Below, in pieces: positions 20,574 to 54,796 of a stretch of DNA of 64,000 nucleotides. Source of the DNA: Bacteroidota bacterium (GTDB taxonomy: Bacteria; Bacteroidota; Bacteroidia; B-17B0; Aurantibacillaceae). The stretch is from contig JACCXH010000052.1 in assembly GCA_013697245.1 (NCBI GenBank), positions 1-64,000 on the forward strand, given 5' to 3'. Every line of letters begins with the position of its first letter. Position 1 is the first letter of the stretch. A program made the position numbers and the translations under genes. The notes beneath the pieces were generated by a model that was given only the letters and a program-made list of their open reading frames with translations, searched no databases and had not been told where the DNA came from.

Positions 20574-23500
20574 ATGAAAAACCATTTCATATTTCTATTT
20601 CTCCTTGTATTCTCCGGAACAACTGTTTTTAGCCAGGCTCCAAGTTGCCCAAGTAATTTTGTTTATATTCATAATTCCCCTCAAATTCAGCAGCAATCTG
20701 TAAACCCCTTAGGGCCTGCTGCAACTGTTGTTTTAAGCAGTATGCCTGCAGGTTCAGGCGGTTTAGCAGTTGGCCCGGCTTTTGGTTTTCCGGCACCCAA
20801 CCCAACCTGGTGGACCACCTCGGGCGGAACATTTTGGTATTACAACAATACAGGTACATGGTCAAATACAGGCCATAGCACATCTAATGCTTCTGCAGTT
20901 AATATTGGTGGCGGAGGCGGCGCAATTTATAATTTAGTTGGTTCAACCGGACAGGTTTATAAATACACAGGAGCCGGTGCAGCAACTTTATTGGTTACCA
21001 TTCCAACTTTCGGCGGCGGCGGGCCATATGACCTTGTTGCCGACATGAATGATAATTGGTACATCTTAAAAACAAACGGGCCTCAAAACATGCAGGTATA
21101 TAATTCTGCAGGTGTTCTGTTATGCAGTTATACACTGGCAAATGCCCCGGTATCATCTGCAGGCGGTGGTTTTGCGATCATTAATAATACTGTTTATTAT
21201 ACAAACGCCGGTGCGCATGCAGGTAATATTATTCCAGGTAACTCAACTATTACATTTACCCCTGTTACTTTAAATGGCGGCGGCGATTGGGCTAATTGTG
21301 CTTTACCGGTTCCAACAAGTAGTATTATTGCGCCACAAGGAGGAACATTAACCTGTTCGCTACCATCGTTACAATTGGTGGCTATGATCAATCCAAATGG
21401 AGCGGTTGGTATGTTAAGCGTTACCCCGGCATCAACCTTAAACGTCTGTACCTATACATGGTCTGGCCCAGGTATTATTGCCGGCCAATTCACACCCACG
21501 ATCACAGTTAACCAACCCGGTGTTTACAGTTATACAACTTGCACGGGCAGCTGCCCATCCTATTCACTTAATAATTCTTATACGGTTGTTGGTCAACCAT
21601 CGGTTTTAAATCCAACAATTACTGCACCCACTTGTATGTCGGGTAATGCCGTATTGTCTGTAATGCCTAATAATACGGCAACAAATACGATTCTTTGGTC
21701 GGGGCCCGGTATAACATCAGGGCAGGGAACTGCAACCATAAATATTAACAGCGCAGGTTTATACTCCGTAACAATAACAGCCGTTAGTAGTCCATGCGCA
21801 GGTACTGCCACCATTAATGTATTGGCAAACCCTACTTTGGCGATGGCATACAGCAGTCCAACGGTCTGTGCCCAGAACTTAAACAACTCTCCTAACTCAA
21901 TTACTTTAACCGCTTCGGGAGCAAGTAATTATACTTTGTTAACCAGTAGTAATTACGCTTCATCGTCGTCGAGTATATCGCCAATGGTATTAACGCCGGT
22001 GGGCCCGTTTTCATCCAACCCATCTGTTGCCACAAGTACATTGATTGGTACAAATGGTGTTTGTTCTGCAACAATTACTTCTAACTTCTCAATTTTACCC
22101 AACCCAACGGTAACTGTTACACCAACGGCAACGAGTGTTTGCCAGGGAAATAATTTTACGTTCAATGCTTCCGGTGCGGCTAATTATATTTGGTCGCCGG
22201 CTACCGGTTTAAATACAACCACGGGAAGTGCAGTAATAGCTAGCCCTGCAATTACTACCGTGTATTCGGTTATGGGATCAAGTTTAGGCTGCAATGCGGC
22301 AATACAAACCGCTACATTAACTGTTTTACCAATACCTACTGTTGCTATTACTCCAAACACACCAACAATTTGTGTAGGGGGAAATATTAATTTAACCGCT
22401 AATAGTAATGCAACTACATTTAACTGGTCGCCATCCCTTGGTTTAAATAATACTACAAATGCTGTTGTAACGGCTAATCCACCTTCTACCCAAACTTATA
22501 CAGTATTGGTTAATTTAAGCAGTTGCACAAACACAGCGGTAGTAACGGTTTCTGTAATTGTGGTACCAAATCTATTAACGAATGTATCTGCACCAATTAT
22601 TTGTCAGGGACAAAACACAAATATTAATGTAAATGGCGCAACTGGTTACAATTGGTCGCCAACCACAGGTTTAAATACATCCACAGGACCTTTTGTTATT
22701 GCCTCACCGGCAGTAAGCACCAATTATATTATTACAGGCTTTAATGGTGTATGTACCGCTTCTGCCAGTGTATTTATTGATGTTGTTCCAGCGCCAAACA
22801 TTACGATCACGTCTCCTGAATACCAGATCTGCTATGGTAAATCAACACAGATAACTGCATCGGGCGCACAGAACTTTACATGGTCGCCTTCATCTGCAGG
22901 TCTATCCAGCACTACAGGATCGGTTGTAACAGCAACACCATCAGCAAATGTTAATTATACTATTATAGGATATAATCAAAGTGGCAGTGTAACGTGTACT
23001 CAGCAAATGAGCTATTCAGTAATTGTTGTTCCTATTGCTGTTGCATTAGTTTCACCAAGTGTTGCAATTTGTGAAGGCGCAAAAACTATGTTAACTGCCA
23101 GCGGTGGCAATACAGTCATATGGTCGCCAACAGTAGGATTAAATACTAGTTCGGGAGGCGGAGTTATTGCCAGCCCAAGCGTTTCAACACTTTATACAGT
23201 AGATGTTTCATATGACGGATTCTGCGGCGGGTCAAATACAGTATTTGTAAAAGTAAATCCAAATCCAAAAGTTACGGCAGGAAGAGATACTACCATTAAT
23301 TTAGACCAACCGATGTTCTTAAGCGCAACCGGAACCGGCACAATGACTTGGACGGATGGCGAGGCTATTATGTGCAGTGTTTGTCCCAATAGTCAGGTAT
23401 TTGCAACCAGAAATAGTTGTTATACTATAGAAACTATTAATGATTTTGGTTGTAAAGCAAAAGATGATATGTGTATTGAGGTGACCAAAGAATTTGGTGT

Positions 23501-23765
23501 TTATATTCCAAACGCGTTCTCTCCAAATGGAGATGGCTTAAATGATGAATTCATAATATCGGGTTATAATATTTCTGAAGTAACCATGGATATATTTGAC
23601 CGTTGGGGTGAAAAAATATTCACTTCTAAAGACATGTTGGTAGGCTGGAAAGGCACATATAAGAACATTTTATGCGAAGAGGCGGTTTATATATACAAAA
23701 TATCTTACAAAGGATTAGATGGCAAAAAAGTAAATAAAACTGGCCATGTAACTTTAAACAAATAA
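20574..23765 (+). CDS. Large T9SS type B surface protein (gliding-type C-terminal domain)
   Basis: This 1063-residue protein begins with a signal peptide (MKNHFIFLFLLVFSGTTVFS). The first ~250 residues are Gly/Asn/Thr-rich and propeller-like (VYKYTGAGAATLLVTIP, YDLVADMNDNWYILKT). Ig/PKD-like repeats of roughly 75-90 residues follow, each with NYIWSPATGLNTTTG-type motifs. The C-terminal ~90 residues are a CHU_C/type B sorting domain (VYIPNAFSPNGDGLNDEF, DRWGEKIF). The final ~330 residues are nearly the same as in the next gene. It probably acts as an adhesin or filament at the cell surface. Confidence 0.9.
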   Translation: MKNHFIFLFLLVFSGTTVFSQAPSCPSNFVYIHNSPQIQQQSVNPLGPAATVVLSSMPAGSGGLAVGPAFGFPAPNPTWWTTSGGTFWYYNNTGTWSNTGHSTSNASAVNIGGGGGAIYNLVGSTGQVYKYTGAGAATLLVTIPTFGGGGPYDLVADMNDNWYILKTNGPQNMQVYNSAGVLLCSYTLANAPVSSAGGGFAIINNTVYYTNAGAHAGNIIPGNSTITFTPVTLNGGGDWANCALPVPTSSIIAPQGGTLTCSLPSLQLVAMINPNGAVGMLSVTPASTLNVCTYTWSGPGIIAGQFTPTITVNQPGVYSYTTCTGSCPSYSLNNSYTVVGQPSVLNPTITAPTCMSGNAVLSVMPNNTATNTILWSGPGITSGQGTATININSAGLYSVTITAVSSPCAGTATINVLANPTLAMAYSSPTVCAQNLNNSPNSITLTASGASNYTLLTSSNYASSSSSISPMVLTPVGPFSSNPSVATSTLIGTNGVCSATITSNFSILPNPTVTVTPTATSVCQGNNFTFNASGAANYIWSPATGLNTTTGSAVIASPAITTVYSVMGSSLGCNAAIQTATLTVLPIPTVAITPNTPTICVGGNINLTANSNATTFNWSPSLGLNNTTNAVVTANPPSTQTYTVLVNLSSCTNTAVVTVSVIVVPNLLTNVSAPIICQGQNTNINVNGATGYNWSPTTGLNTSTGPFVIASPAVSTNYIITGFNGVCTASASVFIDVVPAPNITITSPEYQICYGKSTQITASGAQNFTWSPSSAGLSSTTGSVVTATPSANVNYTIIGYNQSGSVTCTQQMSYSVIVVPIAVALVSPSVAICEGAKTMLTASGGNTVIWSPTVGLNTSSGGGVIASPSVSTLYTVDVSYDGFCGGSNTVFVKVNPNPKVTAGRDTTINLDQPMFLSATGTGTMTWTDGEAIMCSVCPNSQVFATRNSCYTIETINDFGCKAKDDMCIEVTKEFGVYIPNAFSPNGDGLNDEFIISGYNISEVTMDIFDRWGEKIFTSKDMLVGWKGTYKNILCEEAVYIYKISYKGLDGKKVNKTGHVTLNK

Positions 23766-23775
23766 AATTGATCGT

Positions 23776-23993
23776 GTTCTGTGTTTATGTAAGAGCATAT
23801 TTAAATTTATTTAATTAAAATTGTTATTGAATATTTTTAGGTGAAATAAGGCGGGTTTTGCAGCAATAGTGAAATTAATTATTGCTAAAAATCCAACGAA
23901 GTTGCAGACAAAAAGGTCAATAAGAATGAGGTTAAATAAATATTAAACATGCTCTAGGAGGTGTGGGTTTGTGTTTCCACACCTTTTTCTTTT
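23776..23993 (+). repeat. Structured non-coding 3' element, copy 1
   Basis: This ~218-base sequence begins 10 bases after the stop of the gene at 20574 and is repeated at 27293-27509 with about 13 differences by eye and one indel. It contains no plausible frame. A two-part hairpin (23853-23859/23888-23894 and 23863-23868/23880-23885) and a terminal terminator stem (23959-23967/23976-23984) are preserved in both copies, with changes that turn A-U or G-C pairs into G-U pairs. Most of the 390-base gap 23766-24155 is this element plus the upstream element of the next gene. Confidence 0.8.
23959..23993 (+). terminator. Intrinsic terminator ending 3' element copy 1
   Basis: AGGTGTGGG (23959-23967) pairs with TCCACACCT (23976-23984), the innermost pair being G-U. 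The loop is 8 bases and TTTTCTTTT follows. Confidence 0.85.
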
Positions 23994-24053
23994 AAGTCTA
24001 TTAATGAGCCCTTCGCACCTAAACATTTATAAACATTCTTTTTAACAAAGCTC

Positions 24054-24070
24054 TTTACTCACCAAACCCT
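24054..24070 (+). promoter_or_regulatory. 17-base upstream element, copy 2
   Basis: TTTACTCACCAAACCCT, with one difference from 20472-20488, ends 86 bases before ATG 24156. That is the same distance as copy 1 has from its gene, and it supports 24156 as the real start rather than the in-frame ATG at 24120. Confidence 0.45.
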
Positions 24071-24155
24071 ATCCTTTAATAATTATAGAATGTGTTTTAA
24101 ATTTTTGTGAAAAATACACATGAAATATGCCGTAAATTTATACAAAATCGATTTA

Positions 24156-27100
24156 ATGAAATTATCAACAAAAATTGCTCTTGCTATTATCCCTTTGATC
24201 AGCGCTGTAACAGGTATTTCTCAAAACTGCCCTAGTTTAGGTCCCGATCAGTTTTTACCTTGTGGTGTAAATCAAACTGTATTAACGGCCAACCTAACTA
24301 CTTGTAATCCCTCAACAATTACAGCAAATCAAACTACAACTTATTCAGTTACTAATATTCCTTTTGCAGCTCAACCAACAGTTGGCGCAACTAACGTACC
24401 ACTTAGCGATGACTCGCAGGCGGGGCCATTTAACATTGGCTTTTCATTTTGCTTTTTCGGAAACACCTATACTCAAATGTATATTGGTTCTAACGGATGG
24501 ATATCTTTCTCTGCCGGACAGCCTGTAACATTTGCATCATCGCCAATTCCAAGTGCCAGTGGAAGTGTGGCTAAAAATTGTATCATGGGTCCATGGCAGG
24601 ATTGGTATCCTCAAACAAATTTACAAAACGTAAGTTACCAAACCCTTGGTACTGCGCCTTGCAGAAGGTTAGTTGTTAGCTGGAAAGATATTCAAATGTA
24701 TTCTTGCTGGGCAAGCCAAGGTTTAGGAAATTTTCAAATCGTTATTTACGAAGGAACAAATTTAATTGAAAATCATATCGGAAATAAACCTAATTGTGTG
24801 GGTTGGTCTGGTGGAACCGGTGTACAAGGGCTTCATAACCTCGCAGGCACAGTTGGTATAACTGTTCCGGGAAGAAATTCAACTCAATGGACAACAGTAA
24901 ATAATGCTTACAGGTACTCACCTGCGGGTGCACCCGTTAATCCAACTTTAACCTGGTTTGCAGTAGGTAATCCTGTTCCATTAGGAACCGGACCAACACT
25001 TACAGTTACTCCTCCCGTTGGTGGACAGCAATATACTTGTCATTTTGTTTACCCTGCCTGTTATGTAGGTTTTGATAGTTGTATTCCAAACGCTGCTGGT
25101 AATTCACCCGATACTGTTTTGGTTGTTCCGGGTTTAGCAGGTATCAATCCAACTATTACAGCACCCACTTGTATTAATGGTCCAACTCAAATTTCTGTTG
25201 CGCCAAACTCTGCTACAAATATCGTTCAGTGGACAGGTCCGGGGATTATAGGTTCTACAACCTCTCCAACTATTACAGTAAATGCTACTGGTATTTATTC
25301 AGTTGTGATCAGTAACGCAGTAAATACCTGCACAGGGTCGGCAAGTGTATTGGTATCACAAACGCCAACATTAAATATTGCCAGTACAACAAATACGATG
25401 TGTTCGTTTAACTCTAATGGATCTTTAAACACCGCTAACTTAACGGCAAGCGGGGCAACAAATTACACATGGACAAATATTTCAGGGATGTTAAATACTA
25501 CCGGGTCAAATACAGCTACGATTATTTCAGTTACGCCAATACCCGGTTTTGCTACCGGCTCTGCAACATTAGTAGGGGTAAATGGCCCATGTTCAAATAC
25601 CATCTCCTTTAATATTGCTATCATTCCAAATCCAACCATAGCCGTTACAAGTGCCAGCGTTTGCCAAGGGCTTGGGAATACTTTGGTAGCAAGTGGCGCA
25701 GCAAATTATAACTGGTCGCCTTCTTCAGGTTTATCTGCAACAAACGTAGCTACTGTTACAGCTAATCCAAATATTACAACGGTTTATAGTGTTATTGGTA
25801 ATAATTTAGGTTGTAATAGTACAACTCAAACAACTACTTTAACGGTAGTGCCAAATCCAACAATTACTGTTACACCATTAACAAATACAATTTGTGCAGG
25901 TGGTAATATGAATTTAACGGCTAACGGTGCTTCAACTTATAACTGGGCGCCAAATACAGGTTTAAATACTACAACAGGCGCAATTGTTAATGCCGGCCCG
26001 GCTTCTACAACAAATTATACAGTTATTGGTTCTGCTGCATCTTGCACAGGTTCGGCAGTTTACCAGGTATCTGTAATTATAGTTCCAAATTTAATAACTA
26101 CGGTGTCCAGAGATATTATTTGTAACGGTACAACCTCTAACCTTAATGTAAATGGCGCTAATGGTTATGTATGGGCACCTACAACAGGTTTAAATTCACC
26201 AACAGGTGCGTTTGTTGTAGCTTCACCTCCTACCACTACAAATTATACTGTAACAGGTTTTAATGGGGTTTGTACCGCTTCGGCAAGTGTCTTGTTAACG
26301 GTTGTTCAATTACCAAATTTAACTATCAGCTCACCTGAATACCAGATCTGCTATGGTAAATCAACACCGATCTATGCATCAGGTGCACAAAACTATACTT
26401 GGTCGCCTAATAATGGTTTATCAAGTACAACCAATTCAAATGTAATAGCTACACCTTCTGCTAACATAAATTATACAGTGGTAGGTTATAATCAAACAGG
26501 TACGGTTGTTTGTCCGCAACAAATGAGCTATTCAATAATTGTAGTTCCTATTTCTGTGGCTTTAGTTTCGCCAAGCATTGCACTTTGTGAAGGCGAAAAA
26601 ACCATGTTAACGGCCAGTGGTGGTAATACGATATTGTGGACACCAACAGTAGGTTTAAGCAGTGGTAGTGGCGGCGGAGTTATTGCCAGTCCAAGCGTTT
26701 CAACACTTTATACAGTAGATGTTTCTTATGACGGATTCTGCGGAGGCTCAAATACGGTATTTGTAAAAGTAAATCCAAATCCAAAAGTTACGGCAGGAAG
26801 AGATACTATCATTAACTTAGAACAACCAATGTTCTTAAGTGCAAGCGGCACCGGCACAATGACGTGGACAGACGGTGAGGCCATTATGTGCCGTGTTTGC
26901 CCGAACAGTCAGGTTTTTGCTACCAGAAATAGTTGTTATACAATTGAAACCATTAATGACTTTGGTTGTAAAGCAAAAGATGAAATGTGTATTGAAGTAA
27001 CTGTTGATTTTGGTGTTTATATTCCAAATTCATTTACGCCAAATGGGGATGGTATAAACGATGAGTTCTTAATTTCGGGGTACAATATCTCAGATATAAC

Positions 27101-27281
27101 CATGGATGTATTTGACCGTTGGGGCGAAAAACTATTCACCTCAAAAGAAATAACAACCGGCTGGAAAGGTAATTACAAGAATCTTCCATGCGAGGAGGCT
27201 GTTTATATTTATAAAGTAACTTATAAAGGACTAGATGGCAAAAGAGTAAATAAAACAGGCCATGTAACTCTAAACAGATAA
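24156..27281 (+). CDS. Large T9SS type B surface protein, paralogue of the gene at 20574
   Basis: About 1041 residues from ATG 24156. I prefer this start to ATG 24120 because the signal peptide begins there (MKLSTKIALAIIPLISAVTG) and the shared upstream element is then at equal distance. The head (to about residue 270) differs from its paralogue: FNIGFSFCFFGNTYTQMYIG and SNGWISFSAG resemble beta-sandwich adhesion modules. PKD/Ig-like repeats follow. The last ~330 residues, including the CHU_C domain (VYIPNSFTPNGDGINDEF, FDRWGEKLF), match the paralogue closely. Probably an adhesin exported by the T9SS. Confidence 0.9.
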   Translation: MKLSTKIALAIIPLISAVTGISQNCPSLGPDQFLPCGVNQTVLTANLTTCNPSTITANQTTTYSVTNIPFAAQPTVGATNVPLSDDSQAGPFNIGFSFCFFGNTYTQMYIGSNGWISFSAGQPVTFASSPIPSASGSVAKNCIMGPWQDWYPQTNLQNVSYQTLGTAPCRRLVVSWKDIQMYSCWASQGLGNFQIVIYEGTNLIENHIGNKPNCVGWSGGTGVQGLHNLAGTVGITVPGRNSTQWTTVNNAYRYSPAGAPVNPTLTWFAVGNPVPLGTGPTLTVTPPVGGQQYTCHFVYPACYVGFDSCIPNAAGNSPDTVLVVPGLAGINPTITAPTCINGPTQISVAPNSATNIVQWTGPGIIGSTTSPTITVNATGIYSVVISNAVNTCTGSASVLVSQTPTLNIASTTNTMCSFNSNGSLNTANLTASGATNYTWTNISGMLNTTGSNTATIISVTPIPGFATGSATLVGVNGPCSNTISFNIAIIPNPTIAVTSASVCQGLGNTLVASGAANYNWSPSSGLSATNVATVTANPNITTVYSVIGNNLGCNSTTQTTTLTVVPNPTITVTPLTNTICAGGNMNLTANGASTYNWAPNTGLNTTTGAIVNAGPASTTNYTVIGSAASCTGSAVYQVSVIIVPNLITTVSRDIICNGTTSNLNVNGANGYVWAPTTGLNSPTGAFVVASPPTTTNYTVTGFNGVCTASASVLLTVVQLPNLTISSPEYQICYGKSTPIYASGAQNYTWSPNNGLSSTTNSNVIATPSANINYTVVGYNQTGTVVCPQQMSYSIIVVPISVALVSPSIALCEGEKTMLTASGGNTILWTPTVGLSSGSGGGVIASPSVSTLYTVDVSYDGFCGGSNTVFVKVNPNPKVTAGRDTIINLEQPMFLSASGTGTMTWTDGEAIMCRVCPNSQVFATRNSCYTIETINDFGCKAKDEMCIEVTVDFGVYIPNSFTPNGDGINDEFLISGYNISDITMDVFDRWGEKLFTSKEITTGWKGNYKNLPCEEAVYIYKVTYKGLDGKRVNKTGHVTLNR

Positions 27282-27292
27282 ATTTTTATAGC

Positions 27293-27509
27293 GTTCTGTG
27301 TTTATGTAAGAGTATATTTAAATTTATTTAATAAAATTGTTATTGAATATTTTTAGGCGAAACAAGGCGGATTTTGCAGCAATAGTGAGATTAATTATTG
27401 CGAAAAATCCAACAAAGTTGCAGCCAAAAAGGGCAATAAGAATGAGATGAAATAAATATTAAACATGCTCTAGGAGGTGTGGGTTTGTGTTCCCACACCT
27501 TTTTCTTTT
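27293..27509 (+). repeat. Structured non-coding 3' element, copy 2
   Basis: Second copy of 23776-23993, starting 11 bases after the stop of the paralogous gene. It folds in the same way: outer stem 27369-27375/27404-27410, inner stem 27379-27384/27396-27401, and terminal stem 27475-27483/27492-27500. Here the pairs that are G-U in copy 1 are A-U and G-C. By eye it is about 94% identical to copy 1, whereas the last ~300 coding bases before it are only about 80% identical. It fills most of the 305-base gap 27282-27586. Confidence 0.8.
27475..27509 (+). terminator. Intrinsic terminator ending 3' element copy 2
   Basis: AGGTGTGGG (27475-27483) pairs with CCCACACCT (27492-27500) as a perfect 9-bp stem with an 8-base loop, then TTTTCTTTT. 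Confidence 0.88.
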
Positions 27510-27586: not shown

Positions 27587-30517
27587 ATGAACAAGTTCTC
27601 CATAATTTTTATTCCGTTAATAATTTTTGCTGCATTTTCTTTCCAGGATCCTCCTAAAATAAAAAAAGATCCTGATTTTTTAAACTCACAAAATAAATGG
27701 GTCGATTCTGTTTTTAACTCATTAACTCCCGACCAGCGTCTTGCGCAACTCTTTATGGTGGCTGCATACAGCAATAAAGACCTTAAACATGCCAAAGAAA
27801 TAAAAGACCTTGTGGTAAATTATAATATTGGCGGATTGATCTGGATGCAGGGCGGACCGGTTAGACAAGGTAAATTAGCAAACTACTATCAAAGCGTTGC
27901 AAAAACACCTTTGCTTTATAGTATTGATGGCGAGTGGGGTTTAGCCATGCGATTGGATAGTACTATTCGTTATCCAAAACAAATGACCCTGGGTGCCATA
28001 CAAAATGATTCTTTAATTTATTTAATGGGAAGGCAGATCGCTAAAGAATGTAAGCGCTTAGGTATTCACGTAAATTTTGCACCTGTGGCGGATGTAAATA
28101 ACAATCCCTTAAACCCGGTTATTGGCATGCGCAGCTTTGGCGAGAACAAATATAAAGTGGCTCAAAAAGCTTACATGTATATGCAAGGGATGCAGGACGA
28201 AAAAGTAATGGCAAATGGAAAACATTTTCCCGGCCATGGCGATACGGATAGCGACTCACATAAAACATTGCCATACATTGGTCACTCAAAAGAACGCTTA
28301 GATTCGTTAGAGTTATACCCTTTCCAATATTTGTTTGATAGAGGCCTTGCAAGCATTATGGTGGCGCATTTAAACATACCTAGTCTTGATACAACAAAAA
28401 ATTTAGCATCTACCTTATCGCCAAATGTGGTGAACGATCTTTTAAAAAATAAAATGGGGTTTAAAGGTTTGATCTTCACAGATGCTTTGAATATGAAAGG
28501 CGTTTCAAAATTCTATGGCCCGGGATTGGTAGATGTAAAGGCTCTTTTAGCCGGTAACGATGTGTTATTGTTTAGCGAAGATGTGCCAAAAGCGATAGAC
28601 GAAATTAATAAAGCAATTAATGAAGGTAAAATAGTTCGTAGTGAAATAGATGCACGTTGCAAAAAAATACTGATGGCAAAATACTGGTGCGGTTTAAATA
28701 TTAAGCCGGAGATAGTTACCCGTAATTTGTATAAAGAATTAAATACAAAAGCCGGCGAAGAGCTGAATTATAAGCTGGCAGAAGCTTCTATAACTTTGTT
28801 AAAGAACGAGAATGATTTTTTACCAATAAAAAAATCAGATAGCTTAAAAATTGTAGAAGTATCTTTTGGTGTTGAAGAAGAGAACTCTTTATATACTACC
28901 GTAAAAAATTACGCTTATGTAGAACATGTTGGTCTATCACACGATGCCAAACTTCCTGCAATAAACACCGTATTTGAAAAAATAAAAAGAGCTGATGTTG
29001 TTATTCTACAATTGAACAAGGCAACTTTAAAGGCAGAGAATAATTATGGAGTAGGCACACAGACCTTAAAGTTAATGGATTCCATTGCTATATTAAAACC
29101 AAGCGTATTGGTATTGTTAACCAACCCTTACATTTTAAATAAGATCACTTCTGTTTCAAATTACAAGGCTGTTGTTTTAGGATATGAATATATGCCAACG
29201 ATATTAAAAGCAACCGCTAATGCCATTTTAGGTTTTGGAAAAGTAAATGGTAAATTACCTGTAAGCACTAATTTGTTTAAGGTAGAAACCGGTTTAACCC
29301 TTGAGCCATCTTTTTTTCCGAAACAAAAATCAATAAAGGAAAATTTCAAAAAAAAAAAATTTGGCGCCATAGATAGTTTGGCCTTGTTTGGAATAGAGGA
29401 AAAAGCTTATCCGGGTTGCCAGATAGTTGCTTTTAAAGATGGCGAATTGATCTACCAAAAATCTTTCGGAAATTTTACTTACGATCCGGATTCAAAACCG
29501 GTTGATAATGGCACTATTTACGATCTGGCAAGCATTACTAAAATTTCGGCATCAGCCCTTGCACTTATGAAATTAAAAACAGAAGATCTTGTAGATTATA
29601 AAAAAACATTAGGCTTTTATTTACCCGAATTGGTTGGTACCGATAAAGAAAATATGATCATTGAAGATGTATTAACGCACCAGGCCGGGTTACAGGCCTG
29701 GATCCCTTTTTATTTACGTACGCTTAAAAAGAATGACGAATTTAAGCCCGGTTTTTATAATAAAAAAGCAACAGAAAAATACCCAACAAGGGTGGCTAAA
29801 AATTTATATGTGGTAAAAGGTTTTAACGATTCTATCTTTAAAAGGATCATCAGTTCAAAACTTGAAACGCCAGGCAAATACTTGTATAGCGACCTTGGTT
29901 ATTATTTTATCCAGAAAATTATTGAACAACAAAGCAAGAAAAAGCTGGACGAATATGTAAGCGATATCTATTTTAAATTAGGAATAGAATTAACCTATCA
30001 ACCCTTAAAAAAGTATTCTATTATTCAAATTGCGCCAACCGAGAACGATTCTAAGTTCAGGAAGCAAATAGTGCAAGGTTTTGTACACGACCCGGGAGCA
30101 GCTTTATTAGGAGGTATTGCAGGCCATGCAGGTTTGTTTGGTAATGCTTTAGATTTGGCAAAGTTAATGCAGCTATATTTAAATAAAGGGGAATTGAATG
30201 GTATAAGAATATTAGATAGCAATGTTGTAAAGGATTTTACTTCCTGCCATTTTTGCCCAACCAACCGTCGTGGTTTATGTTTTGAAAAACCTGAACAGGA
30301 TGATAAAAAAGATAGTCCTGTCACTTCGGAGTGTAGCCCCGAAAGCTTTGGCCATAGTGGATTTACGGGCACCTTTGCCTGGGCCGATCCAAAAAATGGT
30401 TTAGTGTATGTATTTTTAAGTAACCGGGTTTACCCTGATGTGGACCCCAATAAATTAGCGAAGTTAGGAATAAGAGGAAAGATCCACCATGCATTTTATG
30501 AAGCATTAAAAAATTAA
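27587..30517 (+). CDS. GH3 beta-N-acetylhexosaminidase fused to a serine beta-lactamase-like domain
   Basis: A 976-residue exported protein (signal MNKFSIIFIPLIIFAAFSFQ). Residues ~35-390 are a NagZ-like GH3 domain with KHFPGHGDTDSDSH at 212-225 and the presumed nucleophile Asp299 in FTDALNMKG, followed by a GH3 C-terminal domain to ~570. Residues ~595-976 form a penicillin-binding/beta-lactamase-type hydrolase with SITK (649-652), YSD (767-769) and HSG (923-925). Both active sites look intact. It could cleave GlcNAc-anhydroMurNAc or similar glycans and also act as an esterase or D,D-peptidase in the periplasm. AGGAGG at 27581-27586 abuts the ATG, too close to act as its Shine-Dalgarno sequence. 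Confidence 0.92.
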   Translation: MNKFSIIFIPLIIFAAFSFQDPPKIKKDPDFLNSQNKWVDSVFNSLTPDQRLAQLFMVAAYSNKDLKHAKEIKDLVVNYNIGGLIWMQGGPVRQGKLANYYQSVAKTPLLYSIDGEWGLAMRLDSTIRYPKQMTLGAIQNDSLIYLMGRQIAKECKRLGIHVNFAPVADVNNNPLNPVIGMRSFGENKYKVAQKAYMYMQGMQDEKVMANGKHFPGHGDTDSDSHKTLPYIGHSKERLDSLELYPFQYLFDRGLASIMVAHLNIPSLDTTKNLASTLSPNVVNDLLKNKMGFKGLIFTDALNMKGVSKFYGPGLVDVKALLAGNDVLLFSEDVPKAIDEINKAINEGKIVRSEIDARCKKILMAKYWCGLNIKPEIVTRNLYKELNTKAGEELNYKLAEASITLLKNENDFLPIKKSDSLKIVEVSFGVEEENSLYTTVKNYAYVEHVGLSHDAKLPAINTVFEKIKRADVVILQLNKATLKAENNYGVGTQTLKLMDSIAILKPSVLVLLTNPYILNKITSVSNYKAVVLGYEYMPTILKATANAILGFGKVNGKLPVSTNLFKVETGLTLEPSFFPKQKSIKENFKKKKFGAIDSLALFGIEEKAYPGCQIVAFKDGELIYQKSFGNFTYDPDSKPVDNGTIYDLASITKISASALALMKLKTEDLVDYKKTLGFYLPELVGTDKENMIIEDVLTHQAGLQAWIPFYLRTLKKNDEFKPGFYNKKATEKYPTRVAKNLYVVKGFNDSIFKRIISSKLETPGKYLYSDLGYYFIQKIIEQQSKKKLDEYVSDIYFKLGIELTYQPLKKYSIIQIAPTENDSKFRKQIVQGFVHDPGAALLGGIAGHAGLFGNALDLAKLMQLYLNKGELNGIRILDSNVVKDFTSCHFCPTNRRGLCFEKPEQDDKKDSPVTSECSPESFGHSGFTGTFAWADPKNGLVYVFLSNRVYPDVDPNKLAKLGIRGKIHHAFYEALKN

Positions 30518-47140: not shown

Positions 47141-50100
47141 TTATCTTGAAAGCGTTACGTTTCCTTTTTTAACTATTTTTTCTCCATTTACAAATTCCGC
47201 AGTCAGTTGATAAATAAAAACTGCATCATTTTGCATAACGCCGTTATATGTTCCATCCCAGCAATGAGACCTATCCTCACTCTCAAAAACTTTTTCTCCC
47301 CAGCGGTTATAAAGCTGAATGTTCATGGAAGTAATACAGTTTCCGTATACGCACCAAAAATCATTAAAGCCGTCGTTATTAGGACTAAAGGCAGAAGGCA
47401 CAAATGCGTCTCCACAAATTATATCTACTTCAACAATTACTGTATTCGTTACAAGACAGCCGTTATTATCTGTTATTGTTACAGTGTATATGGTTGTTGA
47501 AGCCGGTGCCACGGTATTAGTATCACAGTTATTACAGTTTATTCCAAAAGAAGGAGACCAAGCATAAGTATTTCCTGGAGCTCCATTACCAAATAATGTA
47601 CTCGAAGAGCCATATATAATCTTAGGTGGTTGTGCATAGGCTGTAACAGATTGAGGTGTATAAACTACAACAGCAAATACAGTTGAAGAATTACAAGGAG
47701 CAATGCCGGCGCTTACGGTGTAGGTTGTATTGGCAGGGGGGGCAACAATAATTGTAGTTGTACTGTCACCTGTATCCCAGGTATAATTTATTCCTCCATG
47801 GGCGGTCAGATTAAGTGTATTGCCCAAACAAACTGTTTGAGTTCCACTAATAGTTAGTGTTGGTTGTATCAATACATTTAAGAATACAGTACCCGTGTTT
47901 ACGCAACCATTGCCATCCGTACCAATTACACTATAGGTTGTCGGAGTCACCGGGCTTACAAATTGCGAAGACAAAACAGAGGCATTGCTCCATACATATG
48001 TACTGGCGCCGCTAGAAGAGAGTAAAGCGCTTTGGCCTGCACATATAACGGATGGGGATGTAATGGTTATAATTGGCAGTAGATTTACTATCACCGTTGA
48101 TATTGTTGATGATTTACAACCATTGATATCCTGCCCGGTTACGCTATAGGTTGTATTTTGTATTGGTGTTGCTATAACATTTGGTTGATTGGTGGTGTTT
48201 AAATTTGTGGGTGGTGTCCACGTGTAATTTGTCGCCCCCGATACACTAACGTTTGCAGAATTGCCGTAACAGATAGTATGATCTGAAGTAGATAAAACCG
48301 GCAACGGATTTACTAAAACGCTGGTGGTAGTTGCGCTAAAACAACCTTCGGGGCTAACGCCGGAGATTGTATAAGTTGTACTTATTGTGGGTGTTGCAGT
48401 TACAGTTGGATTATTTGGATTTGATAATGTATTAGAAGGGGTCCAGGTATAACCAGACGCACCATTTATAGTTAATAATGCACTTGAACCAAAACACATT
48501 GTATTACTTGTAACTGTTAAATTCGGTAAAGGGTTAACAACTACAATGGTCGTATTTGTTTTAACACATCCATTGGCATCCATTCCCGTAATGCTGTAAA
48601 CGGTTGTAGAAAGCGGGCTTGCAGTGACAGTAATTGCAGTACTATTGTTAAGAGTAGCAGATGGAGACCATGTGTAGTTAACAGCACCACTAGCACTTAT
48701 AGGCGCACTTTGAGAAAAACAGATGGTGTTACTTGTTGCTGCTACATTAGGTAAAGGATTTACGAGTACAGATGCGGTATTTGTTTTAATACACCCGTTT
48801 GCATCCATACCGGTAACTGTATAAATTGTTGTGACTAATGGATTAGCTGTTACGGATGGCGTTATGCTGCTACTTAATGCAGTAGCAGGAGACCACGTAT
48901 AATTTGTTGCACCGTTCGCACTGATGGATGTACTTTGTAATAAGCAAATAGTAGCGTTACTTGCCGTAACATTAGGTAACGGATTTACTATGACCTGTGT
49001 AGTGTTCGTTTTCATGCAACCGTTCGCGTCAACACCGGTTATTGTGTATACTGTTGTAACCGTTGGATTAGCAGTAACATTTGCAGTTAAACTATTATTT
49101 AGAGTTGCAGCTGGAGTCCAAGTATAATTAACAGCCCCACTTGCGGCAAGCGTTCCGCTCAATAAGGTACAAATTGTATTACTCGTTGCAGCAACGTTTG
49201 GTAAAGGATTCACAACAACTGTAGATGTGTTTATATTTAAGCAGCCATTTGCATCAACACCGGTTATAGTGTATACCGTCGTAACCGTTGGACTAGCAGT
49301 CACATTTGCAGTTACACTATTGTTTAAAGTACCGGATGGTGCCCAGGTATAATTAACAGCTCCGCTTGCGGCAAGCGTTCCACTCAATAAAGTACAAATT
49401 GTATTACTTGTTGCTGCAACATTAGGTAAAGGATTTACAAAAACTGTAGTAGTGCTTGTTTTTAAACAACCATTGATGTCCATACCTGTAACACTGTATA
49501 CTGTTGTTGTTAATGGGTTGGCTGTTACGTTAGACGCTGTATTGCTGCTTAAAGTAGCGGCAGGTGTCCAGGTATAATTAATGGCACCATTAGCAGCAAT
49601 AGTTCCACTTTGTAATGTACAAATAGTATTGCTGGTTGCTGTTACATTTGGCAAAGGGTTAACGGTTATGGCTGTGACGGATGAAGAAGAACAACCATTT
49701 ATGGCAAGACCTGTAACAGTATAGGTTGTTGTAAGTGTTGGATTTGCTATTACAGTTGGCGATATTGAATTATTTAATGTTGCCGATGGAAGCCACGTAT
49801 AGCTATTTGCACCGCTAACCGAAACGTTTGCCGAATTGCCAAAGCAAATAGTAGTATTTGTTGGCGTTATACTCAGCGTTGGATTCGGTTTTATAATTAC
49901 TACTGCAGTATCATTAGAAAGACAGGTATTTCGATTGACCGTGACTATATAATTTGTAGTAATGTTAGAGGTTGTTGCATTTACCCCTGTAACTAAGGGG
50001 TTTGAAATTGTACCAGAACTAAGATTTGTAACTGGCGTCCAACTGTAAGAATAATTCGTTATTGGATTGTATCCAATAATGGCAGTCTGCCCGGGACAAA

Positions 50101-53100
50101 TGCTGGTGTCAATGGCAGTTTTCCTTAAAGGTAAATTTAATACGATCTGCGAAGCGTTACAGGAGCAATGATTTATTGCGGTATCAAGCACTGCAATTAA
50201 ATGACAGGCCGCCCCGGAAGGAATGTTTAAAGTGTAATTGTAAGCATAAGTTCCGTTACTTGGTATAGCCGCATTGAGAGTGTGGGTAGTTATTAAAATA
50301 TCACCAACATTATATATACCATTTGAATTTACATCGTTATAGTAACTAATAACTGTGCTGTTAGAAGAATTTAATGTTTGCCCGGTATTGTTGATCGTGA
50401 AATTGACATAACCCGTTTCTCCCGTTGGGGGATTGGGAACAGAGTAACCGCCGGCATTAATAAGTGTTAAATAACTTTTATATGTAAATATTGGTAATGT
50501 ATCTCCACCTGTAACAACCTGTACACCGCAAAAACTATTAGTAAGTGTACATAATAAAGCCGAACTGCTTGTTGTTTTAGCTTCAAAATTTGAAATATTA
50601 CAGGCCAATTGAATTGGATTCCCGGTATAATTTATATTAAAAACCGTACTGTCGTTTGGTGCAATACCTGTTGGTAATTTCCATGCTAAATTTTGGGTGT
50701 TGTTAATTATAGTTATTGAAGGAATTGTATTTACAGGTGGGTTACTAATCCCAGCAAATGAGGCCGCAACATAAGAAACACCATAAGGTAATATAACCCT
50801 TATAGAATCTGAATTACCAAAAGAAAGTGGCCCTAAATTCTGGCTTGAAACTCTAAGTACAGAAGCATTATTGCAAGGCGAAATAAAAGTACTTTTTAAA
50901 ACTGTATTGGTAGTATATGGTATTGATGCACCCGCAATTCCTAATTGAGAGGATAGCGAAACTAATTGACCCGTTGAAGCGCCACAGCCACTAACGCCAA
51001 AAAAACTAAAGCTCGCTAAACTTCCGGAAGTATAACCACAGGTTGTTCGCACCTTAAATTTAATTTTAACCGCGTTATTTCCTACACTTAAAATACCCGG
51101 TAATCCATTTGCTCCAATACTTGGCGAAGCAACAGAAATATTATATTGATAAGTTGTGCCTCCAATAAATATAGGATCACTAATAGTTACATATGGATTT
51201 ATTATTGGATAGGATAGTTGTGAACTGCCGGGAATGATAATAACACCCACAGGAATATTTACATTAACCGTTAAATTGTAAACACTTCCTAATTGAACAT
51301 TTGTACCTATTACCTCGTAACTGGCTGTATCGCACAGATTAATTATTGTCGATGGTGTAATAACATTCGTGATAAGCAATGGCGATTGTGGTGTTGATTT
51401 AAGTGTGATCTTTTTTGTTATACATGGATAACTTGCGAGTATAACAGGATAGCCCTGACAGTTCCATCCGGCATGAACAATTATACTGTCTTGCGCGCAG
51501 GAGGTGTATGTGCCATATAACCTGTAATTTTTTATAGTACTGCTTGGAAATGTACCAAGCTGATATATTCCACCAACAGGCGTTAGCGTTGCGCTGGTTG
51601 AAAGGTCCACTACTGTATTAATGGTAATACCTGAAATAGTTGGAACAGAGAACCATGTACTGTTTGCCGGCGAGTTGGTAGTATTTGATAAGGAAATATC
51701 CCAGCTAACCACATTACTCGTAGCATTAATAAATGGCAATGGTGATTGTAAGAAAATGGAAGGACCAACATAAGTGATCGCATCTTGCGTATTATCGTTA
51801 CTAACGTTTAAAGTTGTTGTAGAAGGCAAATAGCCTGATGGTTTAAATGTCCAATAATAACCTATGTTTTGAGCTACGTTTTGAATAACACCGCAACTTG
51901 GTTCGATCGTGGCTGAAAATACGCCATAAAAACCATCGTCACTTGGAGTTATTGAAGGAACAGAGGCGGATGTAAAAAAGGATCCAACAGGAAACACTAA
52001 TGTATTAGTTGCAGCACTTATTGGGGCAATGGTAAAAACCGGTGAACTGGAAGCGTTGAAGGTCCCCATTGTTCTTGTATCATAAAAACTAGCTGCTACA
52101 AATTTATAGCCTGCCGGTAAAACCGTTTTTAATGTATCAATACGTGCCCAGTTCCTATATTCAAAAGGAAATAAATTTCCTCCGGCATAATTACTGCAAC
52201 ACGGCCCGATTGATAAATAATAATTTTGTGTGATCACAGCCTGGTTACAGTCGGTAACATTATAACTGTTTGGTCCGTAATTGGTATAATAATAACCAAT
52301 AATTGAAAAATTACCCTGGAATGTATTACATGAAAAAATATTAACCGGATTTGTTGGATTAGGGATATCAGAAACTATAAATGTATTTGTTGTTGATGAA
52401 GGAAGAATAGCGCCACCAATATTGGTTGTAACTTTATACTGAGGTTCAAAAATTAAAGAATCATTATTAATAAATACAAAGCCCGGACTAACCCCGCCGC
52501 TGGCAATTAAGGCAGTAGCGCTAAGATCATAATTAAAAGTAGTTGCCGGTAAAGCTGCGGCAACACTATTAATATTACAGGTAGCAAACAAAGCGTTTAG
52601 CCGGTAGATCCTTAATTTACCTCCAAGTGAGGTTAAATTATTACCATTAGAGATCGTTGAATTTGCATAACAATATTGCCAGGTCGGATTTGCTACACTT
52701 GTTTTTACTTTTGCATAAAAACTGGATGTAACAGTATCGCCATACATAGCACGCGATCTTTTAATTTTTGCGAAATTCAAAGATCCAAAACCATCAGGTA
52801 AGCCATCATCATTATTATCCGGTGCACCATAGCTTGTTCGTTTAATATCATAATTTAAAAAATTTAAACCTGTACATGTAACAGGGCAAACCAAATTTAA
52901 ATTAAAGTTGCTCGAAATAAGCAGCATTTCGCAAGTACAGGCAGCAGAAGGCGAATAATAAATACCTACACCAATTGTACCCGGGCCACTTACACAGCTG
53001 GCACAATTACCCGTAAGATCAATTAAAAGTTGCGCTTGTTCTAATGTGCTGTATAAGGTAGAATTAAATGGTGGCGAACCTGTAAACATAGCCGTTATAA

Positions 53101-54667
53101 CATTGCCAACCTGCACAACACTTGCCGGTAAAAATGTTGCAGTGCCCACACTATTTATGATCTGAATAGTATTAGGAGAATAAGTATAACAAGGAGACAC
53201 AGTAAAAGTTATTTTTAAATAAGCATCGTTTAATGCCGGCGAACTATTATAAACACCGTTAAGAAGATAATTGAATGTACTGGTTTGCCCTGCTATGATC
53301 GTAGAAGGAGAACCATTATTTACAAGATTGAAAATATAATTTTGACTATAAACCTGGCCCCACGACGCAGGCACTACATAATTGTTTAAACAAATACTTT
53401 GATACGAGGCATTGTAAGCCCATCCATTGTAATAACCATAACCAACATTACAGCAGCTTTGAGTTTTCCAGCTTATTCTTACTGTATCACCCGCATTGAT
53501 GGCTGGTATCGTTAATTCAACTGCTCCTTTTGGACTTCCAGACAAACAACCGGCGGCGCTTGCAGAAGTACTTGTGGGTGCTAAAGGAGAAGGGGCGCCA
53601 GCGTTCACTTTTATGGTAATGCTTGCAAGAATTATTTCTGTTTGTTGGGAAGGATCATAATAGTTTGGCCCCGACGTTTGGTAAATGTTTAACAAAGTAT
53701 TAATGGCCTGTCCGGCACCCGTATTTACTATTTTAAGAGTTTGCTGGCTAAAATTTCCGGTGCCCAGGCACGGATTTACGGCTGGTTGCGCAGTAATTAC
53801 CAGATTTGGCACAAAGCTTGGAAATATGACGTTTGCTGTTGAAACAGAGGTTTGACAGGCTTGTGCATTACATCCCCAAGCTGAAGTAAATGTAGAAAGA
53901 ACAGACGAACAATTAAGAATATTAACCGTTTCACAAATAGTAATACTTTCCCCTGTTTCAAACAAAGCGTTATTATTGCCGATTGCTGTAAAATTCGAAC
54001 CATTTAATACATAAGTTTCTGTTGTTCCAACGCTCGTCCAGGCTCCGGGTGAGGCAGCCGTAATTTGTATGCCATTGCCATGAACATCCGTAAGGGTAAA
54101 TGTGCTCAACTCTCCTGTGCCGCCATTTGTTATGGTAATGCATCTTGTAAAAGTGCCTCCAATAGTACCGCTGAAAGACTGATTGGTAATAGTTGTTATA
54201 GATAAATTAGGTTGCTTTACAAAAAAAAGTTGCGTTGTATGCAGATCAAATGTCGTATTAGATCCTGCTGTATAGTTGACCTGTATTTTGTTTTCTGTTG
54301 GTAACCCTAAACTTAAATAATTTAAAATATTACAATCGGCCGATGCCGTGTAGGTTATAACTACGGATGTAAGGGAAGGGAGGTTAGCTAAACTAAATGT
54401 TGGAGCATTTGATGGAACGGTAGTAAGCTGCGTAGCGTTAGTAACTGAACCTATTTGATAATTAATACCGCTTGGCATCGTTAAACTTACTGTAATATTT
54501 GTAAGATTAAAGGCCGAAGGATTATTGATAGTAAAAGAAAAAACTTTTGCCTGCCCGCAAATAGTTATACTACTTGGAACCGTTGATGAAATTGTGATGT
54601 AACCGCCGGTGGAAAGTGCTTTTAAAGAAAATAAACTTAAGATCAGAAACAGGTAGATTTTTCTCAT
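47141..54667 (-). CDS. Giant repeat adhesin, T9SS type B (SprB-like)
   Basis: About 2508 residues from ATG 54667, where a signal peptide starts (MRKIYLFLILSLFSLKALST); an ATG 30 bases further up is less likely. The first ~1500 residues are a chain of DUF11-like and other beta-sandwich domains (ISGITINTVVDLSTSATLTP and similar). Then come tandem Ig-like units of exactly 75 residues (VNPLPNVAATSNTIC ... NYTWTP ... VYTITGVDANGC) between about 48075 and 49650. The C-terminus is a CHU_C/type B sorting domain (FVPSAFSPNNDGFNDFW, YNRWGEKVFESED). A PorP/SprF gene follows. Most probably a surface filament for adhesion or gliding. Confidence 0.92.
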   Translation of the reverse strand: MRKIYLFLILSLFSLKALSTGGYITISSTVPSSITICGQAKVFSFTINNPSAFNLTNITVSLTMPSGINYQIGSVTNATQLTTVPSNAPTFSLANLPSLTSVVITYTASADCNILNYLSLGLPTENKIQVNYTAGSNTTFDLHTTQLFFVKQPNLSITTITNQSFSGTIGGTFTRCITITNGGTGELSTFTLTDVHGNGIQITAASPGAWTSVGTTETYVLNGSNFTAIGNNNALFETGESITICETVNILNCSSVLSTFTSAWGCNAQACQTSVSTANVIFPSFVPNLVITAQPAVNPCLGTGNFSQQTLKIVNTGAGQAINTLLNIYQTSGPNYYDPSQQTEIILASITIKVNAGAPSPLAPTSTSASAAGCLSGSPKGAVELTIPAINAGDTVRISWKTQSCCNVGYGYYNGWAYNASYQSICLNNYVVPASWGQVYSQNYIFNLVNNGSPSTIIAGQTSTFNYLLNGVYNSSPALNDAYLKITFTVSPCYTYSPNTIQIINSVGTATFLPASVVQVGNVITAMFTGSPPFNSTLYSTLEQAQLLIDLTGNCASCVSGPGTIGVGIYYSPSAACTCEMLLISSNFNLNLVCPVTCTGLNFLNYDIKRTSYGAPDNNDDGLPDGFGSLNFAKIKRSRAMYGDTVTSSFYAKVKTSVANPTWQYCYANSTISNGNNLTSLGGKLRIYRLNALFATCNINSVAAALPATTFNYDLSATALIASGGVSPGFVFINNDSLIFEPQYKVTTNIGGAILPSSTTNTFIVSDIPNPTNPVNIFSCNTFQGNFSIIGYYYTNYGPNSYNVTDCNQAVITQNYYLSIGPCCSNYAGGNLFPFEYRNWARIDTLKTVLPAGYKFVAASFYDTRTMGTFNASSSPVFTIAPISAATNTLVFPVGSFFTSASVPSITPSDDGFYGVFSATIEPSCGVIQNVAQNIGYYWTFKPSGYLPSTTTLNVSNDNTQDAITYVGPSIFLQSPLPFINATSNVVSWDISLSNTTNSPANSTWFSVPTISGITINTVVDLSTSATLTPVGGIYQLGTFPSSTIKNYRLYGTYTSCAQDSIIVHAGWNCQGYPVILASYPCITKKITLKSTPQSPLLITNVITPSTIINLCDTASYEVIGTNVQLGSVYNLTVNVNIPVGVIIIPGSSQLSYPIINPYVTISDPIFIGGTTYQYNISVASPSIGANGLPGILSVGNNAVKIKFKVRTTCGYTSGSLASFSFFGVSGCGASTGQLVSLSSQLGIAGASIPYTTNTVLKSTFISPCNNASVLRVSSQNLGPLSFGNSDSIRVILPYGVSYVAASFAGISNPPVNTIPSITIINNTQNLAWKLPTGIAPNDSTVFNINYTGNPIQLACNISNFEAKTTSSSALLCTLTNSFCGVQVVTGGDTLPIFTYKSYLTLINAGGYSVPNPPTGETGYVNFTINNTGQTLNSSNSTVISYYNDVNSNGIYNVGDILITTHTLNAAIPSNGTYAYNYTLNIPSGAACHLIAVLDTAINHCSCNASQIVLNLPLRKTAIDTSICPGQTAIIGYNPITNYSYSWTPVTNLSSGTISNPLVTGVNATTSNITTNYIVTVNRNTCLSNDTAVVIIKPNPTLSITPTNTTICFGNSANVSVSGANSYTWLPSATLNNSISPTVIANPTLTTTYTVTGLAINGCSSSSVTAITVNPLPNVTATSNTICTLQSGTIAANGAINYTWTPAATLSSNTASNVTANPLTTTVYSVTGMDINGCLKTSTTTVFVNPLPNVAATSNTICTLLSGTLAASGAVNYTWAPSGTLNNSVTANVTASPTVTTVYTITGVDANGCLNINTSTVVVNPLPNVAATSNTICTLLSGTLAASGAVNYTWTPAATLNNSLTANVTANPTVTTVYTITGVDANGCMKTNTTQVIVNPLPNVTASNATICLLQSTSISANGATNYTWSPATALSSSITPSVTANPLVTTIYTVTGMDANGCIKTNTASVLVNPLPNVAATSNTICFSQSAPISASGAVNYTWSPSATLNNSTAITVTASPLSTTVYSITGMDANGCVKTNTTIVVVNPLPNLTVTSNTMCFGSSALLTINGASGYTWTPSNTLSNPNNPTVTATPTISTTYTISGVSPEGCFSATTTSVLVNPLPVLSTSDHTICYGNSANVSVSGATNYTWTPPTNLNTTNQPNVIATPIQNTTYSVTGQDINGCKSSTISTVIVNLLPIITITSPSVICAGQSALLSSSGASTYVWSNASVLSSQFVSPVTPTTYSVIGTDGNGCVNTGTVFLNVLIQPTLTISGTQTVCLGNTLNLTAHGGINYTWDTGDSTTTIIVAPPANTTYTVSAGIAPCNSSTVFAVVVYTPQSVTAYAQPPKIIYGSSSTLFGNGAPGNTYAWSPSFGINCNNCDTNTVAPASTTIYTVTITDNNGCLVTNTVIVEVDIICGDAFVPSAFSPNNDGFNDFWCVYGNCITSMNIQLYNRWGEKVFESEDRSHCWDGTYNGVMQNDAVFIYQLTAEFVNGEKIVKKGNVTLSR
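48075..49875 (-). repeat. Tandem 225-bp coding repeats (75 residues each)
   Basis: The anchor G-G-(T/C)-A-(A/G)-G/A-G at the repeat start recurs at 48075, 48300, 48525, 48750, 48975, 49200, 49425 and 49650: eight anchors separated by exactly 225 bases, with no indel. Flanking copies outside this range are out of register. Neighbouring units are more similar in protein than distant ones. Confidence 0.85.
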
Positions 54668-54796
54668 ATCGTAAATATAATATATATATACCCGCAAATT
54701 ATAATACTCTACGAGAAATTTTTTTATTAAAACGCTTTAGATGCCGCGGCCACCCTTCTAAATTAGAAATAATCCTTTTTAGCGTGTGGCAAAACG

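What the first reader, a model, noticed from the sequence alone, without database searches (positions are those of the whole stretch)
23776..27509. A ~218-base structured non-coding element is duplicated behind two paralogous surface-protein genes
Copies at 23776-23993 and 27293-27509 differ at about 13 positions by eye with one indel (about 94% identical), yet no frame fits. The last ~300 coding bases before them are only about 80% identical, so the non-coding part is better conserved than its coding neighbour. Two hairpins and a terminator are preserved; the changed stem positions I could pair keep pairing (A-U to G-U at 27371/27408 against 23855/23892; G-C to G-U at the top of the terminator stem). 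This could be a 3'UTR-derived small RNA, a processing element, or a tract kept alike by gene conversion.
Basis: seen in the sequence. Interest (0 to 1): 0.75.

Follow-up and report, generated by a model that had tools for sequence, protein, structure and literature searches.

The report
Jumping hairpin element copied between paralogs
The repeated non-coding stretch is a short DNA element that jumps around the genomes of Bacteroidia and folds into a long hairpin; it landed behind one surface-protein gene and was most likely copied behind the gene next to it when the tail of one gene overwrote the tail of the other.

Summary
In detail: 23776-23993 and 27293-27509 match at 205 of 217 aligned bases with one gap, while 12 of 27 fourfold sites in the last 100 codons differ. 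The tract is a ~20 nt leader, a 161-162 bp palindromic element (23793-23954; 27310-27470) and a separate intrinsic terminator. The element belongs to a dispersed mobile family: terminal inverted repeats (GAGCCTGTTTAAA...), TAA/TTA target duplications, length 160-163 bp in 42 of 56 and 24 of 26 copies, six places in this genome, 18 of 40 same-genus and 24 of 395 sampled class genomes. Its transposase is not identified (one IS1182-type gene has similar ends), so it is MITE-like with unknown partner. Its hairpin covaries strongly, but failed pairs are G-T and A-C about equally, so RNA-level selection is not shown. Relatives carry the same gene pair without the element, and gene A here carries the terminator type typical of B, so the shared tail most likely arose by gene conversion. 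New member of a known kind, with one unusual feature: a structurally conserved hairpin of nearly fixed length across about ten families.

The parts
20574..23765 (+). Gene A, 1063 aa, secreted surface protein with C-terminal type IX (type B, CHU_C) sorting domain
   Evidence: PF13585 E 3.2e-18; TIGR04131
24120..27281 (+). Gene B, 1053 aa, paralog of A with the same sorting domain
   Evidence: PF13585 E 3.6e-17; TIGR04131; A/B identity 0.21-0.27 in the first 400 alignment columns, 0.78-0.90 in columns 800-1100
23163..23312 (+). Coding block 94% identical to its counterpart in gene B (fourfold 5 of 27 differ), a second patch of possible conversion
   Evidence: neighbouring blocks 80% and 88%
23772..23792 (+). 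B-type leader before the element in copy A
   Evidence: 19 matches, 2 substitutions, 1 gap against copy B; similar leader before the terminator in element-free relatives
23790..23792 (+). Left 3-bp target repeat TAA, copy A
   Evidence: right partner is TAG, one base different
23793..23954 (+). MITE-like palindromic element, copy A (162 bp)
   Evidence: R1 hit 140.9 bits, full length
23793..23812 (+). Left terminal inverted repeat, copy A
   Evidence: sequence; family consensus GAGCCTGTTTAAA
23935..23954 (-). Right terminal inverted repeat, copy A
   Evidence: sequence
23955..23957 (+). Right 3-bp target repeat, copy A (TAG, decayed)
23959..23993 (+). Intrinsic terminator A, B-type (AGGTGTGGG...CCACACC TTTTT), also present without the element in relatives
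27307..27309 (+). Left 3-bp target repeat TAA, copy B
27310..27470 (+). MITE-like palindromic element, copy B (161 bp)
   Evidence: R1 hit 152.1 bits, full length
27471..27473 (+). Right 3-bp target repeat, copy B (TAG, same decay as copy A)
27475..27509 (+). Intrinsic terminator B

Best explanation
Each copy is a 161-162 bp non-autonomous, MITE-like mobile element sitting between a stop codon and an older intrinsic terminator. It inserted once, into a TAA target behind one of two old tandem surface-protein paralogs, most likely B. It then spread to the other paralog when a gene-conversion tract holding leader, element and terminator (and, patchily, coding sequence) was copied from one gene to the other. 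Shown: the family, its terminal repeats, target duplications, mobility, the element-free relatives and the B-type tail on gene A. Inferred: that a transposase not yet identified (IS5- or IS1182-like) moved it; that insertion came before the last conversion; that conversion ran from B to A; and that at this site the hairpin now does nothing essential.
For: Family: 18 of 40 same-genus genomes (E<=1e-3), 31 of 87 genomes of the family, 5 of 10 genera (E<=1e-7), 24 of 395 sampled genomes of the class, 12 of 197 genera; own genome 6 distinct places, one weak (E 1.1e-4). Target duplication: 3-bp flanks equal in 22 of 56 copies against 9.3 expected, highest of 10,000 shuffles 18; in 26 copies from seven other families 22 of 26 against 9.0, 0 of 10,000 shuffles as high. 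Mobility: identical copies without shared flanks (L234/L235, L230/L231, L032/L050), three copies of 97.5-98.1% in G038, and L037 of this genome against L053 of another species 96.3% without shared flanks. Conversion: A against B 0.09-0.28 aa identity in the first 400 alignment columns (G003 has no A residues in the first 100), means between orthologs 0.38-0.87; in columns 800-1100 A/B is 0.78-0.90 here, 0.87-0.90 in G013 and 0.95-1.0 in G003, means between orthologs 0.68-0.79. JACD and G012 have unrelated terminators behind A and G023 a related but different one, while B has the AGGTGTGGG-type terminator in all five relatives with both genes; here, in G003 and in G013 A has that type. Both window copies share the altered TAG flank and are 93.2% alike; the mean identity of the other 44 aligned copies to the two is at most 74.0%.
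Against: At fourfold sites the coding tails (columns 800-1100) of A and B differ here at 53 of 117, as much as B differs from B of G003 (47 of 115) and not much less than A from A of G003 (63 of 111), so recent conversion here rests on the 3'UTR and one coding block, not on the whole tail. JACD and G012 show no clear excess of A/B likeness. No transposase with the exact ends was found (PF01609 16 of 40 genomes, PF13340 1, PF13586 1, PF13359 3); the nearest is an IS1182-family gene (L139). The window copies have unequal flanks (TAA/TAG). Two independent insertions are not strictly excluded. Length and internal loops are conserved more than a dead MITE needs.
Confidence: 0.82

Rival explanations
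1. The element is a functional structured RNA (3'UTR-derived small RNA or mRNA processing/stability element) that is kept by selection and happens to be mobile.
For: Strong covariation in 46 copies: 179 cells with changes on both sides against 54 in shuffles, 0 of 500; 93.9% cells paired against 81.3% shuffled and at most 53.2% when slid. The + strand folds about 10 kcal/mol better than the - strand in 45 of 46 and 30 of 31 copies of a class-wide set. Tandem copies in the window's family lie mostly sense, 12 against 3, p 0.035.
Against: In the 26 pairs common to the + and - optimised structures G-T and A-C cells are even (25 and 23; events 20 and 14), which points to strand-neutral constraint; each strand's own optimum is biased its own way (46/26 and 28/99). 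The strand difference can come from shared ancestry of the internal loops. The orientation bias is not repeated outside the family (5 sense, 8 antisense). No Rfam match at gathering scores, only two far below. The element is absent from 8 comparable 3'UTRs.
Confidence: 0.12
2. Covariation is mutational: template switching inside a quasi-palindrome keeps the arms alike, without selection. (This concerns why the hairpin is conserved and can hold together with the best explanation.)
For: The mechanism is proposed for RNA hairpins in PMC8794818 (title and start of abstract in the listing). The G-T/A-C evenness fits a DNA-level process.
Against: Double changes do not cluster on neighbouring pairs of the same branch (4 against 2.3 expected, 377 of 2000 shuffles as high). 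Mismatched loops (GAGGC opposite AACGAAG) persist in most copies of the class-wide alignment, where template switching would tend to erase them.
Confidence: 0.25
3. Two independent insertions of the same element at the same place behind A and B.
For: The AT-rich spot before a conserved terminator is alike in both genes.
Against: Same altered TAG flank, same orientation, leader and terminator also near-identical, and the two copies are 93.2% alike while the next copies average 74.0%.
Confidence: 0.04
4. Simple recent tandem duplication of gene plus 3'UTR.
For: Two genes in tandem with matching tails.
Against: Five relatives have the same A/B pair before the same downstream gene, and N-terminal parts of A and B are 0.21-0.27 identical here.
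Confidence: 0.01

Closest known systems
Bacterial MITEs as reviewed by Delihas 2007 (PMC2229807) and in Genes 2024 (PMC10969869)
   Same: Under 200 bp, A+T-rich, no protein, terminal inverted repeats, target duplication, intergenic, transcript a long stem-loop (passages seen)
   Different: Most copies hold one length (160-163 bp) and one covarying hairpin with conserved internal loops across about ten families of one class; PMC10969869 has no match for 'Bacteroid' or 'Flavobacteri'
Correia / NEMIS elements of Neisseria (PMC2649163, PMC2229807)
   Same: Palindromic mobile element of similar size near genes; RNA hairpin on which RNase III can act (start of abstract in listing; passage)
   Different: Other sequence, other phylum; no full promoter of the Bacteroidota consensus in 46 copies (0 matches, 1.0 expected; consensus recalled); RNase III action untested
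IS5 family, IS1031 group
   Same: 3-bp target (PMC2516522 passage); ends beginning GAG and TNA targets are recalled, not from a call
   Different: No IS5-type transposase with these ends found in the genus
IS1182 family element in G008 (L139 about 591-2363, 529-aa transposase, NF033551 434.9 bits against cut-off 270)
   Same: Both ends GAGGCTGTCTCAAAA, 3 mismatches from the element's consensus end; the first ten bases equal the ends of the G007 and G226 sub-families
   Different: Flanks TAA and TTC, no equal 3-bp repeat; no element copy with exactly these ends was seen
BrickBuilt MITE of Porphyromonas gingivalis (PMC4596501)
   Same: MITE in Bacteroidota, always intergenic (passages)
   Different: Carries 23-nt tandem repeats, 84-991 nt long; the present element is nearly fixed in size
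REP palindromes and REPINs
   Same: Intergenic palindromes
   Different: 20-40 bp units (start of abstract of PMC3733652 in listing); mobilisation without a 3-bp duplication is recalled

Membership tests
MITE | Terminal inverted repeats | tested here: met
   GAG at the left and CTC at the right end in 38 of 56 copies, with GAGCCTGTTTAAA-like repeats
MITE | Target site duplication | tested here: met
   22 of 56 in the family (9.3 expected); 22 of 26 outside it (9.0 expected); window copies TAA/TAG, unequal
MITE | Short, A+T-rich, no coding capacity | tested here: met
   160-163 bp in 42 of 56 copies, GC 0.23-0.40; no ORF of 100 aa in the window copies
MITE | Dispersed multi-copy, mobile | tested here: met
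   six places in 399 kb of G226, three of them weak
MITE | Ends shared with an autonomous element that supplies the transposase | tested here: inconclusive
   no exact match; one IS1182-type gene with similar ends
IS5 family / IS1031 group derivative | IS5-type transposase with matching ends | tested here: inconclusive
   none in the genus genomes searched; other families not searched for transposases
IS1182 family derivative | IS1182 transposase with matching ends and target | tested here: inconclusive
   ends similar, 3 mismatches, flanks not a 3-bp repeat
Correia-like element | Outward promoters and RNase III cleavage | tested here: inconclusive
   full Bacteroidota promoter consensus absent, -7 half in excess; RNase III not testable here
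Known Rfam RNA family | Score above a family's gathering cut-off | tested here: not met
   0 matches in the window; best sub-threshold 17.8 bits against 60
Trans-acting small RNA | Stable transcript | not testable with these tools
   no RNA-seq available
Gene conversion tract | Paralogs more alike within a species than orthologs between species in one segment only | tested here: met
   amino acids in columns 800-1100 and 3'UTR/terminator type; fourfold sites of the coding tail here do not show it

The most novel reading that the evidence does not exclude
A class-wide mobile hairpin of Bacteroidia whose whole length, fold and asymmetric internal loops are under selection because the folded nucleic acid (cruciform, single strand or RNA) is what the mobilising protein recognises, not only the terminal repeats; that is, a mobile element kept as a structure and served by a still unidentified transposase.
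Probability: 0.2. Interest if true: 0.65.

Novelty: new member of a known kind. Interest (0 to 1): 0.4.

Why it matters
It shows how non-coding DNA better conserved than its coding neighbour can come from patchy gene conversion carrying a mobile element rather than from RNA function. It also gives Bacteroidia a large hairpin-element family that I did not find described (listings), with a covariance model, clean target duplications and young identical copies, from which transposase, target choice and the cause of structural conservation can be tested.

Tried and rejected
Coding function of the tract: no ORF of 100 aa or more. Known RNA family: none. tRNA or tmRNA: none in the window.

Blastn alone gave only the two window copies in this genome; the covariance model gave six places.

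Autonomous partner: four transposase families in 40 same-genus genomes, exact and relaxed end patterns, and one 359 kb contig of G226, a genome outside the family with several copies; no exact partner. The one gene bounded by similar ends is IS1182-type (L139). Plasmids, phages and viral contigs: no match to the queries tried.

Promoter function: no full Bacteroidota consensus in 46 copies (0, 1.0 expected); the -7 half alone is in excess (33 against 15.8), not followed up. Enrichment between divergent genes in the window's family (26 of 49 sites against 21.9% of intergenic bases, p 1.8e-6) was not seen in copies outside it (9 of 26 against 31.6% in G226), so I do not build on it.

RNA-strand selection: the fold asymmetry favours the + strand, but the drift of pairs does not.

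Rows dropped: one search used 56 of the places, not all. Alignment A3 holds 36 of those 56 plus 10 of 14 family loci L151-L164; dropped were second copies of a site, one identical copy, copies with inserts or deviant length, and low-scoring ones. Alignment A4 holds 12 copies of the family and 19 of the 26. One search excluded 2 of 51 sites, 4 of 30. Searches used 6 of the 9 loci (L065, L068, L069 left out as distant). The class search scored at most 7 candidates per genome.

Full report
WHAT IS THERE. The two tracts are real and as alike as described: 205 matches, 12 substitutions, 1 gap, against 79-81% identity and 12 of 27 different fourfold sites in the last 100 codons. They fold strongly (z -5.2 and -6.1), but as a single long imperfect hairpin followed by a separate terminator.

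THE TRACT HAS SEPARABLE PARTS. A blastn search of 40 same-genus genomes found two main kinds of match: the hairpin of about 165 nt (67-79% identity, several copies in some genomes) and the terminator alone (87-97%). Reading the flanks showed a family with fixed ends, GAGCCTGTTTAAA and its complement, 160-163 bp long in 18 of 19 extracted copies; the other has a 22-bp insert. Over 56 copies 42 are 160-163 bp; the rest run from 142 to 199 bp. A covariance model (R1) found it in 18 of 40 same-genus genomes, with six distinct places in this genome, two of them in the window and one weak; in 31 of 87 genomes of the family and 5 of 10 genera (the 'order' search covered 87 genomes too, all of this family); and in 24 of 395 genomes sampled from the class, 12 of 197 genera, ten families of which one (f54) has only a weak hit. 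In 399 kb of G226 it hit six places, three of them weak, which by proportion suggests some 60 per genome (inference).

IT TRANSPOSES. The three bases flanking the element are equal in 22 of 56 copies of the window's family (9.3 expected, maximum 18 in 10,000 shuffles) and in 22 of 26 copies from other families of the class (9.0 expected, none of 10,000). Of the 22 equal ones in the family 21 are TAA or TTA. Identical copies sit at sites that share no flank 12-mer, and four pairs of old copies are shared at the same site by two species. In the window the flanks are TAA and TAG in both copies: one old, slightly decayed insertion seen twice.

HOW IT CAME TO LIE BEHIND BOTH GENES. Five related genomes have the A/B pair before the same downstream gene, judged by the ORF ends printed (loci); a sixth, G031, has one gene. 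N-terminal parts of A and B are unlike within a species (0.09-0.28 in the first 400 columns) and alike between orthologs; in columns 800-1100 the A/B identity is 0.95-1.0 in G003 (fourfold differences 8 of 140), 0.87-0.90 in G013, 0.82-0.86 in G023 and 0.78-0.90 here, against means of 0.68-0.79 between orthologs, while JACD and G012 show no clear excess. At fourfold sites the coding tail here does not look recently converted: 53 of 117 differ between A and B, 47 of 115 between this B and that of G003, 63 of 111 between the A genes. Only some blocks are close (23163-23312: 5 of 27). The 3'UTR gives the clearer signal. In JACD and G012 gene A ends in an unrelated terminator, and in G023 in a related but different one, whereas gene B has the AGGTGTGGG-type terminator in all five; here and in G003 and G013 gene A has the B type. 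The simplest reading is repeated, patchy conversion from B to A over the tail. None of the 8 B-type 3'UTRs in the relatives holds the element. So it inserted in this lineage and, since the A and B copies are 93.2% alike with the same leader, flank and terminator, was copied later than the coding tails last exchanged. This is why the non-coding part is better conserved than the coding part next to it.

IS THE HAIRPIN FUNCTIONAL? The family covaries: on a MAFFT alignment of 46 copies 22 of 34 pairs have changes on both sides, 179 such cells against 54 in shuffles (0 of 500), 93.9% paired against at most 53.2% in slid versions. In a class-wide set of 31 it is 27 of 41 pairs, with conserved unpaired blocks such as GAGGC and AACGAAG. 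The + strand folds better in 45 of 46 and 30 of 31 copies, which is expected if the loops are inherited. A test that would favour RNA, more G-U than A-C among failed pairs, is even when only pairs common to both strand optima are used: 25 against 23 cells, 20 against 14 events. With the + optimised structure it is 46 against 26 and with the - optimised one 28 against 99, each biased by its choice. Clustering of double changes, which template switching would give, is not seen. I therefore hold the hairpin to be conserved as a palindromic structure, cause open, and I do not claim an RNA role at this site.

CONTEXT. Copies of the window's family lie mainly between divergent genes (26 of 49 against 21.9% of intergenic bases) and rarely between tandem genes (15 of 49 against 69%). 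This was not repeated for copies outside the family (9 divergent and 13 tandem of 26; background 31.6% and 55.1%, from G226 only). The gene calls are mechanical. I treat it as retention of old copies, unproven.

KNOWN OR NEW. By its ends, target repeats, size and dispersal it is a MITE in the sense of PMC2229807 (passages and one section read). The partner is not identified. An IS5/IS1031 origin rests on the 3-bp target (PMC2516522 passage) and recall. An IS1182-type gene in G008 has ends similar to the G007 and G226 sub-families but no equal 3-bp flanks. I found no description of the element in the listings or by its letters (one hit, an unrelated DNAzyme paper). The library is open-access only, and I could not consult ISfinder.

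Noticed in passing
window 27587-30517: One 976-aa gene joins a family 3 glycosyl hydrolase and a beta-lactamase/PBP4B-like domain; a gene with the same start and end follows gene B in the relatives (by eye).
   Followed up: no
window 47141-54697 (-): A 2518-aa gene on the other strand also ends in a type B type IX sorting domain.
   Followed up: no
window 57639-63923 (-): A 2094-aa ORF was listed and not searched.
   Followed up: no
L085:1501-1702; L048:1501-1684: Elements in G017 share the terminal repeats but have other cores (202 bp and 184 bp); G017 also has solo ends without an evident partner.
   Followed up: partly
L139 about 591-2363: A 529-aa IS1182-family transposase gene in G008 is bounded by GAGGCTGTCTCAAAA repeats, similar to the ends of some sub-families of the element: a lead for the mobiliser.
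   Followed up: partly
46 element copies (A3): The -7 promoter half TAnnTTTG is in excess (33 against 15.8 in shuffles) although no full promoter consensus is present.
   Followed up: no
L061 (G003) gene pair: A and B tails are almost identical over about 300 codons, a very recent conversion in another species.
   Followed up: yes
L037 (this genome, contig 30) and L053 (G003): 96.3% identical element copies at sites without shared flanks in two species, suggesting recent movement or transfer.
   Followed up: partly
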